From Bifidobacterium breve (GTDB lineage Bacteria; Actinomycetota; Thermoleophilia; Solirubrobacterales; Solirubrobacteraceae): a DNA stretch of 43,770 nucleotides. Below are positions 23,093 through 41,501 of this stretch, one piece after another. How positions within the stretch are numbered: position 1 is the first letter of the stretch; the number at the start of each line of letters is the position of its first letter. Under the pieces are notes generated by a model that did not search any database, was not told where the DNA came from, and worked only from the letters and a program-made list of their open reading frames with translations. The stretch is taken from contig CAMCUD010000036.1 in the NCBI GenBank assembly GCA_945878865.1, forward strand, positions 1-43,770. Reading direction: 5' to 3'. The translations under genes and the position numbers were made by a program.

Positions 23093-23881
23093 TCAGGGAG
23101 TGGGTGTTTGTGTGGGAGTCGGGGTGACACCGGTCGCCGCGGCGGCCGGGTCCTGCTCGGTGGCGACCGGCGCCGCGAGCCCGCCCGCGGCCGGCCGCTC
23201 GGGCAGGCGAAGATCGAGGTACGTGGCGCCCTTGGCCTCGTCATCGGCAAGCACGCGGGCGGCGGCCGCCCACTTCGCCGGGAGCCGGTCGCCGCGGCCA
23301 AAGCGCAGCCTCGGGCCGTCGCGGAGGACGACCGTCATGCCATCGGGGCCGATGAACGCGCGCTCGGCACGAGCGCGCAGCGCAGGCGGAGCCGTGGCCA
23401 TGAGCGCGACGAGAGCACTGGCCTTCTCGCCACGCACACGGTGGCCGCCGACCGACGTCCGGACGCGGACCTGGGGCAGGTCGTCGGTCCGGCTGCCCGT
23501 CAGCACGGTGCCGTCGCCCGCCACGGGAATCCTCCGGGTGCCCGTGTCGAGCGCGGCAACGGGGATGCGCGAGCGCACGACGATGCGCAGCCGGTGCGGC
23601 ATGTCGGCCTCGGCGCTGACCGACGCGACGGTCGGGTACTGGCGCACGGCCGCGCGCAGCTCGTCCTCGCGGACGTGCATCGTCGTCATGTCGCGCGCGG
23701 CGCGGGTCAGCGCGCTGCGGACCTCGTCGGCCTGGCTGCCCTGGGCGCCGGTGATCGTGACGTCCTGCACCGCGACGAACGACGAATCGCGCAGCCACAT
23801 CCAGCCGACGCCCAGCAGGACGACGGCGAGAACGGTGACGGCCCCAGCGAGGGCGTAGCGGTTGGCGCGAAGCGCACGCAC
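23093..23881 (-). CDS. ftsQ: cell division protein FtsQ
   Basis: 262 aa, bitopic divisome protein that connects early and late division proteins with FtsL and partners. A short basic N-terminus (RALRANRYALAG), one membrane segment at about 12-31 (AVTVLAVVLLGVGWMW) and a POTRA domain starting SFVAVQDVTITGAQGSQADEVRSAL, then the beta domain with PHRLRIVVRSRIPVAAL. The C-terminus ends in a Pro/Thr tail (TPTPTQTPTP) that is outside the conserved domains. The start is GTG, 37 nt after murB. Length is typical for actinobacteria. Confidence 0.9.
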   Translation of the reverse strand: MRALRANRYALAGAVTVLAVVLLGVGWMWLRDSSFVAVQDVTITGAQGSQADEVRSALTRAARDMTTMHVREDELRAAVRQYPTVASVSAEADMPHRLRIVVRSRIPVAALDTGTRRIPVAGDGTVLTGSRTDDLPQVRVRTSVGGHRVRGEKASALVALMATAPPALRARAERAFIGPDGMTVVLRDGPRLRFGRGDRLPAKWAAAARVLADDEAKGATYLDLRLPERPAAGGLAAPVATEQDPAAAATGVTPTPTQTPTP

Positions 23882-39059: not shown

Positions 39060-39488
39060 TCAACCAGCATGGCCGAGGGATTGGGTGATCTGCTCGGGGG
39101 ACAGCTCGGCGTCGTACTCCGCCCACTTCGTGCGGTCCCAGATCTCCAGGCAGGTCTCGGCGCCGACGACGACCGTCTCCTTGGAGAGGCCCGCGTGCTC
39201 GAGGAGCTTGGGAGGAACCATGACCCGGCCCGCCGAATCCAGTTCGGCGTCGAAGGCGTTGGCGGAGAAGAAGCGGGTCATCTGGCGGCGCTGCGGTGAG
39301 AGCTCGGGGAACTGGGCGACGGCGCGCTCGACGAAGGCGTCGTAGTCGGCGGCGGGCCAGATCGCGGCACAGGGCTCGATGCCCGCGGCGATGACGATCC
39401 CCCCGCTGAGCGCGGCGCGGAACTTGGAGGGAACCGTGAGGCGGTTCTTCGCATCGAGGGAGTGGTCGAAGGTGCCGCGAAAGGCCAT
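39060..39488 (-). CDS. mraZ: transcriptional regulator MraZ
   Basis: 142 aa, two SpoVT/AbrB-like domains in tandem: GTFDHSLDAKNRLTVPSKFR (4-23) and AFDAELDSAGRVMVPPKLLEHAGL (about 77-100). The DxxxR motifs (DAKNR, DSAGR) contact DNA. In E. coli MraZ represses the dcw cluster by binding TGGGN repeats before its own gene; TGGG repeats are found here at 39577-39621. First gene of the cluster. No convincing Shine-Dalgarno sequence precedes the ATG, and the leader contains a strong hairpin. Confidence 0.95.
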   Translation of the reverse strand: MAFRGTFDHSLDAKNRLTVPSKFRAALSGGIVIAAGIEPCAAIWPAADYDAFVERAVAQFPELSPQRRQMTRFFSANAFDAELDSAGRVMVPPKLLEHAGLSKETVVVGAETCLEIWDRTKWAEYDAELSPEQITQSLGHAG

Positions 39489-39517: not shown

Positions 39518-39560
39518 GAGCCGAGGTGGAGGGGTGGGAGGAGCCCCTCCACCTCGGCTC
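39518..39560 (-). promoter_or_regulatory. perfect 17-bp hairpin in the mraZ leader
   Basis: Arms GAGCCGAGGTGGAGGGG and CCCCTCCACCTCGGCTC pair without mismatch around a 9-nt loop. It ends 29 nt before the mraZ ATG, between the TGGG array and the gene, so it is probably transcribed as part of the leader. It could act as an attenuator, an mRNA stabiliser or a protein-binding site. Confidence 0.6.
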
Positions 39561-39576
39561 GCAGTGGCGACGGTAT

Positions 39577-39621
39577 CCCACGATCTCCCACATCGCAACC
39601 CACATCGGCACTTTTCTCCCA
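39577..39621 (-). promoter_or_regulatory. mraZ: MraZ-box array upstream of mraZ
   Basis: Four GTGGG repeats on the minus strand (TGGG blocks at 39577-39580, 39587-39590, 39599-39602, 39618-39621) with start-to-start spacings of 10, 12 and 19 bp. A candidate promoter TTGCGA-N17-TACCGT overlaps the first three, so a bound MraZ would block it. The 10-bp spacing matches known MraZ sites. Confidence 0.65.
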
Positions 39622-39716
39622 CTTCACAACACCAGTGGACATCTGTTCGATGCCGAAGACCCCTGTTTGCAGGCGATAACCCCGGGAAACCGGCGCAGGC
39701 ACGACCGGCGGCGGAA

Positions 39717-39732
39717 TGCACGGATCCGTGCA
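39717..39732. promoter_or_regulatory. 16-bp perfect palindrome TGCACGGATCCGTGCA
   Basis: Perfect two-fold symmetric 16-mer midway between the two TGGG arrays. It has the size of a dimeric repressor operator. No gene in the window is an obvious binder. Confidence 0.5.
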
Positions 39733-39755
39733 GGAACCCGCGAGACGGGGCCCAG

Positions 39756-39805
39756 TGGGGGCCCGTGGGTGGCCGTGTGGGGCGTGGTGGTGGGGCGTCG
39801 TGGGA
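39756..39805 (+). promoter_or_regulatory. TGGG-repeat array upstream of the lipoprotein gene
   Basis: Five TGGGN blocks on the plus strand (39756, 39766, 39778, 39791, 39801) with spacings 10, 12, 13 and 10 bp, plus a degenerate TGGTG at 39788 that restores 10-bp phasing. It points toward the lipoprotein gene as the other array points toward mraZ. The region is G/T-rich, so chance occurrence is possible. Confidence 0.4.
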
Positions 39806-39875
39806 CGCCCAGCGCGCCGCCCGCGCAGGTACCCTCAGAGCCCCCGCCGTACCGAATCAGGAGACGTCCTCACCC

Positions 39876-41501
39876 ATGACCGTCAGGATCAGCACCGGCC
39901 TCGCCCGCCGTGCCGTGCTCGGCGCAGCGCTCGCGCTGAGCCTGCCGCTTGCCGCGTGCGGCTCGGACTCATCCGGGGGCGGTGGCCCCGACCCGGCCAC
40001 CGCGGTCCCCGCAAAGGCCCCGATGTACCTCAACGTCACCGTCCGTCCCGAGGGTGACCTCAAGGACAACACGCTCGAGGTCGCGGGCAAGCTGCTGAAC
40101 ACCAAGGACCCGCAGGCGGAGTTCAAGAAGCTGCTCACTGACGCGGGCAGCGAGACCAACACCGCCAAGCTCAACTACGACGAGGACCTCAAGCCGTGGC
40201 TCGGCCAGGAGATCGGCCTGTTCTTCACCAAGCTGTCCGAGGGTGACGACAGCCAGGGCGCGCTCGTGCTGCAGACCACGGACACGGGCAAGGCCCAGGA
40301 CAGCCTCGACAAGCAGCTCAAGCAGCCGTCGAAGCCCGGCCAGCCGACCCCCACCGTCAAGGAGATCGACTACAACGGCGAGAAGGTCCAGGTCGCCAGC
40401 GACGATTCCGCCGCGGCGGTCGTCGACGACCTCGCCCTGATCGGCAGCGTGTCCGGGGTCAAGGCCGCGGTCGACGCGCTGAAGTCCGACGGCGGTTCGC
40501 TCGCGGATTCCTCCACGTACAAGAAGGCCGTGGGCGCGCTGGCCGACGAGGACGAGACCATCGGCTCGGTCTACCTCGACATCCAGGGCACGTTCGACCA
40601 GGTCGCCGCGTCGGGCGAGCTGGACAAGAGCGAGGCCGTCGCGGCCCGCCAGGCGCTGAGCGCCAGCGGCTTCGACAGCGTGGCGATGGGCCTGTCGGTC
40701 GAGGAGAACGCGCTGCGCGTGGACGTCGCCTCGCCGCTGAAAAAGGCGCAGCCCGACCTCGGGGACCCGTCGAAGACCGTGGCCTCGATGCCCGGTGACG
40801 CGTGGTTCGCCGCCGGCGTGGGCGACATCCAGAAGGTCGTCGAGAACCAGCTCAACCAGCTCTCAACGGTGACCGCCCTCGGCGGCGCCGACGTCAACAC
40901 GCTGATCGAGCAGCTCAACCGCCAGCTCGGCACCGACATCCGCGGAGACCTTCTCGCGTGGATGGGTGAAGGCGCCGTGTTCGTGCGCGGGACGAACCTC
41001 GCCGACATCGGCGGCGCGCTCGTCGTCCAGGTCAAGGACACGGCGAAGGCGAAGGCCTCGCTGCCGACGATCCAGCGACTCATCAAGACCTTCGCTGGGC
41101 AGGGCGTGAAGATCCGTCCCCTGTCCGCGTCGGGTGTGGACGCCGGCTTCACCGTGCAGACCGAGCAGATCCCGCTGCCGATCAACGTCGCGCTCGCAGG
41201 TGACAAGTTCATCGTCGCCGTGACCGACACGGCGCTCGCAGCGGCCATCAAGCCGACCGGCACCCTGGCTGACAACGCGGGCTTCAAGGACGCCGCGGAC
41301 GCGCTCGGCGACGGGATCCAGCCGGGCGTGTACCTCGGGTTCCGCCCCGTGCTCGACCTCGTGGAGGGCTTCGGCGCCGCCGAGGACCCCGACTACAAGC
41401 AGGTCAAGCCGACGCTCGATCAGCTCCAGGCCCTCGCCGCCGGAGCGAACAGCGAAGACGACATCTCGCGCCAGCGGATCGTCCTGACGCTCAACGACTA
41501 G
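39876..41501 (+). CDS. DUF3352-type lipoprotein
   Basis: 541 aa. The N-terminal signal ends in a lipobox LAAC (about Cys28), so the mature protein is a lipoprotein on the outer face of the membrane. The rest alternates beta-rich and helical blocks with two similar halves (for example MYLNVTVRPEGDLKDN and, later, GSVYLDIQGTFDQV and VYLGFRPVLDLVEG), as in DUF3352 proteins. Function unknown. The ATG has AGGAG about 12 nt upstream and matches the signal peptide. It is divergent from mraZ and followed by a strong hairpin. The family name is from memory of its layout, so the call is moderate. Confidence 0.7.
   Translation: MTVRISTGLARRAVLGAALALSLPLAACGSDSSGGGGPDPATAVPAKAPMYLNVTVRPEGDLKDNTLEVAGKLLNTKDPQAEFKKLLTDAGSETNTAKLNYDEDLKPWLGQEIGLFFTKLSEGDDSQGALVLQTTDTGKAQDSLDKQLKQPSKPGQPTPTVKEIDYNGEKVQVASDDSAAAVVDDLALIGSVSGVKAAVDALKSDGGSLADSSTYKKAVGALADEDETIGSVYLDIQGTFDQVAASGELDKSEAVAARQALSASGFDSVAMGLSVEENALRVDVASPLKKAQPDLGDPSKTVASMPGDAWFAAGVGDIQKVVENQLNQLSTVTALGGADVNTLIEQLNRQLGTDIRGDLLAWMGEGAVFVRGTNLADIGGALVVQVKDTAKAKASLPTIQRLIKTFAGQGVKIRPLSASGVDAGFTVQTEQIPLPINVALAGDKFIVAVTDTALAAAIKPTGTLADNAGFKDAADALGDGIQPGVYLGFRPVLDLVEGFGAAEDPDYKQVKPTLDQLQALAAGANSEDDISRQRIVLTLND

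What the first reader, a model, noticed from the sequence alone, without database searches (positions are those of the whole stretch)
39577..39805. Divergent phased TGGG arrays: MraZ may control a surface lipoprotein as well as the dcw cluster
Four TGGG blocks face mraZ (spacing 10, 12, 19 bp) and five face the lipoprotein gene (10, 12, 13, 10 bp). MraZ is known to bind TGGGN repeats with about 10-bp periodicity in front of mraZ. A second array aimed at a divergent lipoprotein gene would extend the regulon to an envelope protein of unknown function and suggest it works with division. Caution: a similar TGGG pair with 12-bp spacing occurs by chance in the ftsQ coding end (23101-23117).
Basis: partly seen in the sequence, partly recalled or inferred. 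Interest (0 to 1): 0.6.

Follow-up and report, generated by a model that had tools for sequence, protein, structure and literature searches.

The report
Conserved second operator array upstream of mraZ
Upstream of the bacterial cell-division regulator gene mraZ there is a second, back-to-front set of the short DNA tags that MraZ probably binds; it is real and conserved among relatives, but it keeps its distance from mraZ whether or not the neighbouring lipoprotein gene is there, so it is more likely an auxiliary control site for mraZ than a dedicated switch for that lipoprotein.

Summary
It is not chance. GTGGG-N5-GTGGG occurs only 7 times in the 4.96-Mb genome, 3 of them in this 387-bp gap. 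Across 118 genomes of the family, away-facing TGGG pairs at exactly 10 bp occur in 43 (14 genera; shuffles at most 2), with the same preceding G as the mraZ-facing boxes.

Away-facing pairs are equally frequent with and without the divergent DUF3352 gene (20/53 vs 21/59, p = 0.85). They sit at fixed distances from the mraZ core operator (about 107 bp, and 211-233 bp), including where the neighbour is a co-oriented pilus gene and nothing divergent exists. A genus with DUF3352 next to mraZ in 21 of 21 genomes tested has no pairs, and DUF3352 genes away from mraZ have none (0/10).

Best reading: a conserved auxiliary MraZ operator serving mraZ/dcw autoregulation, possibly by bridging to the core. 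Co-regulation of the lipoprotein in Svornostia, where the array abuts its putative promoter, remains possible. No binding was tested.

The parts
39060..39488 (-). mraZ, 142 aa, first gene of the dcw cluster (rsmH/mraW, ftsI, murE, murF, mraY, ftsW, murG, ftsQ, ftsZ follow on the same strand)
   Evidence: PF02381 E 8.5e-35, TIGR00242 above cutoff; downstream genes by Pfam
39577..39622 (-). mraZ-facing array of four GTGGG boxes (CCCAC at 39577, 39587, 39599, 39618); core is the boxes at 0, +10 and +41
   Evidence: core pair in 114 of 120 family genomes, third box at +31 from the second in 101
39570..39598 (-). putative mraZ promoter: TTGCGA (39593-39598), 17 bp, TACCGT (39570-39575); two MraZ boxes fill the spacer
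   Evidence: consensus TTGCA..GTGGGagaaAGTGGG.TA..tT conserved across the family; promoter assignment is inference, the generic sigma-70 scan finds nothing
39755..39804 (+). away-facing array of five GTGGG boxes (39755, 39765, 39777, 39790, 39800), offsets 179-224 bp from the core box
   Evidence: three boxes are kept in both congeners at offsets 200, 213, 223; family-wide enrichment
39717..39732 (.). perfect palindrome TGCACG-GATC-CGTGCA, local form of a conserved GCA-N8-TGC element between the two arrays; unknown factor
   Evidence: spacing-11 GCA/TGC in 100 genomes, 21 groups; 2 copies of this palindrome pattern in the genome
39518..39560 (-). mraZ leader hairpin (17-bp stem, 9-nt loop); the loop carries another away-facing TGGGAGGA
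   Evidence: stem supported by compensatory changes in 124 leaders; loop motif in 103 of 114 genomes; no Rfam family
39830..39835 (+). putative -10 (TACCCT) of the DUF3352 gene, 25 bp after the last away-facing box
   Evidence: GGTACCCT and the 25-bp gap are kept in all three genomes of the genus; promoter assignment is inference
39876..41501 (+). DUF3352 lipoprotein gene (541 aa, lipobox LAAC)
   Evidence: PF11832 E 1.9e-41; signal peptide and lipobox read from sequence

Best explanation
The away-facing GTGGG array is an auxiliary MraZ operator that belongs to the mraZ/dcw control region. Shown here: the same GTGGG boxes with the same 10-bp phasing lie at preferred distances (106-109 bp, and about 211-233 bp) upstream of the mraZ core operator in many genera of the family, independent of which gene lies beyond. 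Inferred: MraZ, a ring-shaped multimer, occupies the core boxes inside the mraZ promoter spacer and represses; the inverted upstream arrays raise local MraZ concentration or are bridged to the core, which sharpens autorepression of mraZ and the dcw cluster. In Svornostia the array also happens to abut the putative promoter of the divergent DUF3352 lipoprotein gene, so that gene may be co-regulated as a side effect.
For: Spacing spectrum: 10-bp away-facing pairs in 43/118 genomes and 14 genera against a shuffled maximum of 2. The 5' G not used in the search is present in 99% and 95% of pairs, as in mraZ boxes (99%, 92%). GTGGG-N5-GTGGG: 7 in the genome with 3 here; in G069 only 2 in the genome, both at mraZ. 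Preferred offset: up to 11 genera in one 4-bp window at 105-109; genus-wise circular shifts reach at most 8 in 300 trials. Same offset with and without DUF3352: g9 linked 221-223; unlinked G010 223, G069 222, G086 223, G095 223. No association with DUF3352 linkage, p = 0.85. Sister family f2, with no DUF3352 hit in any of 17 fetched regions, has GTGGG at 107-119 in seven genomes.
Against: No binding or expression data. Most genomes lack a pair (71 of 112 with enough sequence), so it is not essential for mraZ control. Offsets are not single-valued (107, 119, 187, 213, 222, 232, and 267-293 in g19). Bridging or looping is inference; a helical-phase test on offsets gave no single clear period. 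Genomes without DUF3352 could be losses that still carry remnants, although that does not explain f2.
Confidence: 0.6

Rival explanations
1. One reading: the array is the operator of the DUF3352 lipoprotein gene, which is a dedicated second target of MraZ.
For: In all three Svornostia-group genomes the array ends 25 bp before a conserved TACCCT; in g1, g3, g4, g6 and most of g9 the distal pair lies 111-167 bp before the lipobox codon; the divergent gene pair is common in the family.
Against: No association between pairs and DUF3352 linkage (20/53 vs 21/59, p 0.85); g14 linked in 21/21 tested with no pairs; unlinked DUF3352 genes lack arrays (0/10); distance to the lipobox varies more than distance to the mraZ core (sd 54 vs 36 bp over the 12 measured); proximal pairs at 107-119 lie far from the lipoprotein start.
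Confidence: 0.15
2. Both: MraZ represses mraZ and, through the same shared operator region, the divergent lipoprotein gene where one is present.
For: Geometry in g1 (array next to the putative lipoprotein promoter) together with the evidence that the array is tied to mraZ.
Against: No conservation signal specific to the lipoprotein side beyond one genus.
Confidence: 0.3
3. The G-rich plus-strand array acts as DNA or RNA structure (G-quadruplex or hairpin) or as a site of an unrelated protein, not as a MraZ operator.
For: Five GGG runs close together; a GGGCGTC...GACGCCC inverted repeat at the end of the array in the window (sequence).
Against: Exact 10-bp pair spacing with GTGGG identical to the mraZ boxes; the inverted repeat is not kept in congeners; the GGGT control shows no spacing peak.
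Confidence: 0.1
4. Chance in GC-rich intergenic DNA.
For: TGGG-N6-TGGG alone reaches 3 per window in 9% of shuffles.
Against: Conservation, genome-wide rarity and positional clustering.
Confidence: 0.01

Closest known systems
MraZ operator of the dcw cluster (E. coli, Burkholderia cenocepacia, Mycoplasma)
   Same: Direct GTG/TGGG repeats with about 10-bp periodicity in front of mraZ; MraZ multimer; repression of its own cluster (PMC8475190; PMC7761207; PMC5282649).
   Different: In E. coli and B. cenocepacia the repeats lie downstream of the -10 (PMC7761207); here the core boxes lie in the putative -35/-10 spacer, one box is 31 bp further upstream, and inverted arrays lie about 107 and 211-233 bp upstream.
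MraZ control outside the dcw cluster (C. glutamicum ftsEX, from my own knowledge; not verified here)
   Same: MraZ acting on an envelope or division gene beyond its own operon.
   Different: Here the second site is next to mraZ and not consistently tied to the other gene.
Auxiliary-operator repression (lac and gal type loops, from general knowledge)
   Same: A core operator at the promoter plus distant auxiliary operators at preferred spacing.
   Different: Works-like comparison only; no looping shown, and the boxes are direct repeats read by an AbrB-like ring protein.

Membership tests
MraZ operator | TGGG/GTG direct repeats with about 10-bp phasing | tested here: met
   spacings 10, 12, 13, 10; 10-bp pairs enriched across 14 genera
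MraZ operator | same box sequence as the operator in front of mraZ in the same genomes | tested here: met
   GTGGG-N5-GTGGG in both; flanking G 99/95% vs 99/92%
MraZ operator | a mraZ gene in the genome, adjacent | tested here: met
MraZ operator | MraZ protein binds it | not testable with these tools
   needs gel shift or footprint
Lipoprotein-specific MraZ regulon member | array conserved with the gene pair and absent without it | tested here: not met
   20/53 linked vs 21/59 unlinked, p 0.85; 0/10 at unlinked DUF3352 genes
Lipoprotein-specific MraZ regulon member | expression responds to MraZ | not testable with these tools
   needs RNA measurement
DUF3352 (PF11832) | Pfam gathering score | tested here: met
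   142.7 bits against 26.8

The most novel reading that the evidence does not exclude
The mraZ control region of this family is a composite, looped repression complex. A MraZ ring bridges core boxes in the promoter with inverted arrays about 10 and about 21 helical turns upstream (and perhaps the inverted box in the leader hairpin loop), with a second unknown dimeric factor on GCA-N8-TGC palindromes in between. This would be long-range operator bridging by MraZ, and where DUF3352 is present it would co-silence an envelope lipoprotein.
Probability: 0.25. Interest if true: 0.65.

Novelty: new variant of a known kind. Interest (0 to 1): 0.45.

Why it matters
MraZ is among the most conserved bacterial regulators, yet its logic (no apparent loss phenotype in E. 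coli, complementation only in cis in Mycoplasma genitalium; PMC8475190) is not understood. A conserved second operator at preferred distances gives a directly testable reason why the ring multimer and the linkage matter, and it corrects the tempting reading that MraZ has acquired a dedicated lipoprotein target.

Tried and rejected
Rfam: no family for the leader or the intergenic region. Conserved-ORF search in the gap: no coding signal specific to the array. Helical-phase test of all offsets: peaks at 10.2-10.3 and 11.4-11.5, not interpretable, so no phasing claim is made. MtrA as the second factor (it binds the mraZ promoter in Dietzia, PMC9602371): the MtrA site as I recall it does not resemble GCA-N8-TGC; not tested. 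G-quadruplex: judged secondary because box spacing and the flanking G are conserved. The E. coli MraZ paper (PMC4010979) is not held, so the exact E. coli box rule is quoted from memory only. Sequence search for solved relatives of DUF3352: none.

Full report
WHAT WAS CHECKED. The window comes from a Svornostia-like member of the Solirubrobacteraceae; the nearest named record is Svornostia abyssi, 91% identical in MraZ. mraZ (39060-39488, minus) opens a normal dcw cluster, and a DUF3352 lipoprotein gene (39876-41501, plus) is divergent from it across 387 bp. All nine boxes are present as described, and each is GTGGG, not just TGGG.

NOT CHANCE. TGGG-N6-TGGG is found three times in the window, all in this gap, but shuffles reach that count in 9% of cases, so the window alone is weak evidence. 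The whole genome and the relatives settle it. GTGGG-N5-GTGGG occurs 7 times in 4.96 Mb, three of them here. In G069 it occurs twice in 3.8 Mb, once on each side of this gap. I assembled the mraZ upstream regions of 122 genomes of the family (three of them). On the away-facing strand, TGGG pairs exactly 10 bp apart are found in 43 of 118 genomes and 14 genera; most other spacings are near the shuffled mean of about one genome, and the other clear peaks, 12-13 and 22-23 bp, are the spacings within the longer arrays. The G before TGGG, not part of the search, is present in 99% and 95% of these pairs, as in the mraZ-facing pair (99%, 92%). The shared sequence and phasing make MraZ the likely reader of both arrays; binding itself was not tested.

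CORE OPERATOR. The mraZ-facing boxes follow a strict plan: a pair at 0 and +10 in 114 of 120 genomes, a third box at +41 in 101, with extra boxes in some genomes (+22 in the window). The family consensus TTGCA..GTGGGagaaAGTGGG.TA..tT reads as a promoter whose 17-bp spacer is filled by the two core boxes. That fits direct promoter occlusion; it is inference, as no start site is mapped and the generic promoter scan finds nothing.

IS THE SECOND ARRAY AIMED AT THE LIPOPROTEIN? Four tests say it is not primarily so. (1) Presence: pairs occur in 20 of 53 genomes with divergent DUF3352 and 21 of 59 without, Fisher p = 0.85; genus g14, DUF3352-linked in all 21 genomes tested, has none. (2) Position: away-facing GTGGG boxes cluster at 106-109 bp and at 211-214, 221-224, 232-233 bp from the core box; up to 11 genera share one 4-bp window near 107, against at most 8 in 300 genus-wise random shifts. 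The offset is the same where DUF3352 is absent: 223 in G010, 222 in G069, 223 in G086 and G095, against 221-223 in DUF3352-linked g9 species. In g12, g13 and g18 the upstream neighbour is then a TadC/T2SSF-like gene on the same strand as mraZ, so no divergent gene is seen there to control (the name rests on resemblance to the window's PF00482 genes, and was not tested for each genome). (3) DUF3352 genes away from mraZ have no arrays, 0 of 10. (4) In the sister family f2, where no DUF3352 hit was found in 17 fetched regions, GTGGG boxes still occur 107-119 bp from the core in seven genomes. Distance to the lipobox codon varies more than distance to the core (sd 54 vs 36 bp, 12 genomes; the 36 is inflated by genus g19).

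In the three genomes of the window's genus the last box lies exactly 25 bp before a conserved TACCCT, the plausible -10 of the lipoprotein gene. There the array would sit at about -40 to -85, a normal place for regulation. So co-regulation in this genus is possible, as a local consequence of an element tied to mraZ. A claim that MraZ regulates the lipoprotein would need expression data.

OTHER ELEMENTS. Between the arrays lies a conserved GCA-N8-TGC palindrome (spacing 11 in 100 genomes, 21 groups), perfect in the window as TGCACGGATCCGTGCA at 39717-39732; within 130-160 bp of the core it is found in 40/53 linked and 33/60 unlinked genomes. The mraZ leader carries a 17-bp hairpin with compensatory changes (for example one pair is A-U in 65 and C-G in 51 leaders) and a nearly invariant loop that, on the other strand, reads TGGGAGGA. 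Both strengthen the view that this is an elaborate mraZ control region. The DUF3352 model (pLDDT 84.5) matches only the Treponema lipoprotein TP0453 clearly, Z 8.4-9.7 over 195-216 residues; this says nothing firm about function.

VERDICT. Observation confirmed; interpretation partly supported. A MraZ-type second operator exists, but conservation ties it to mraZ, not to the lipoprotein. It is a new variant of a known kind of operator. Shown: sequence, spacing, rarity in the genome, conservation, positional constraint, independence from DUF3352. Inferred: MraZ binding, repression, bridging. Limits: pair presence is patchy (41 of 112), genomes are related and often drafts, and the linkage calls rest on Pfam matches and contig neighbourhood.

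Noticed in passing
39518-39560 (-), mraZ leader: 17-bp hairpin at the 5' end of the predicted mraZ mRNA, compensatory changes across 124 leaders, nearly invariant 9-nt loop (CUCCUCCCA in the RNA, TGGGAGGAG on the other strand); the loop motif is also present in sister families f2 and f3; no Rfam match. Could be an RNA element, or the loop could be one more inverted MraZ box.
   Followed up: partly
39717-39732: Palindrome TGCACGGATCCGTGCA; family-wide GCA-N8-TGC element (one or two copies, about 140 and 168 bp from the mraZ core) in 100 genomes. Looks like the operator of an unknown dimeric factor.
   Followed up: partly
39876-41501: DUF3352 lipoprotein: predicted fold resembles Treponema TP0453 (Z 8.4-9.7), with weaker resemblance to mycobacterial TiME/Rv0999-type proteins. 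A second DUF3352 gene lies elsewhere in the genome (contig C20).
   Followed up: partly
Genus g12 loci (e.g. L096), offsets about 377 and 432 from the mraZ core: Two further away-facing 10-bp TGGG pairs inside the TadC-like coding region, kept in five species; coding constraint or extra operators is undecided.
   Followed up: no
G072:C1:2164187-2164201: A consensus-like GTGGGGCGTCGTGGG about 7.7 kb downstream of mraZ on the same strand in one species, within the presumed dcw cluster; not seen in the window.
   Followed up: no
L034, L038, L041: Public MAG records titled Bifidobacterium breve carry mraZ loci of Solirubrobacteraceae type (58-62% identity to the window's MraZ); apparently mislabelled.
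   Followed up: no
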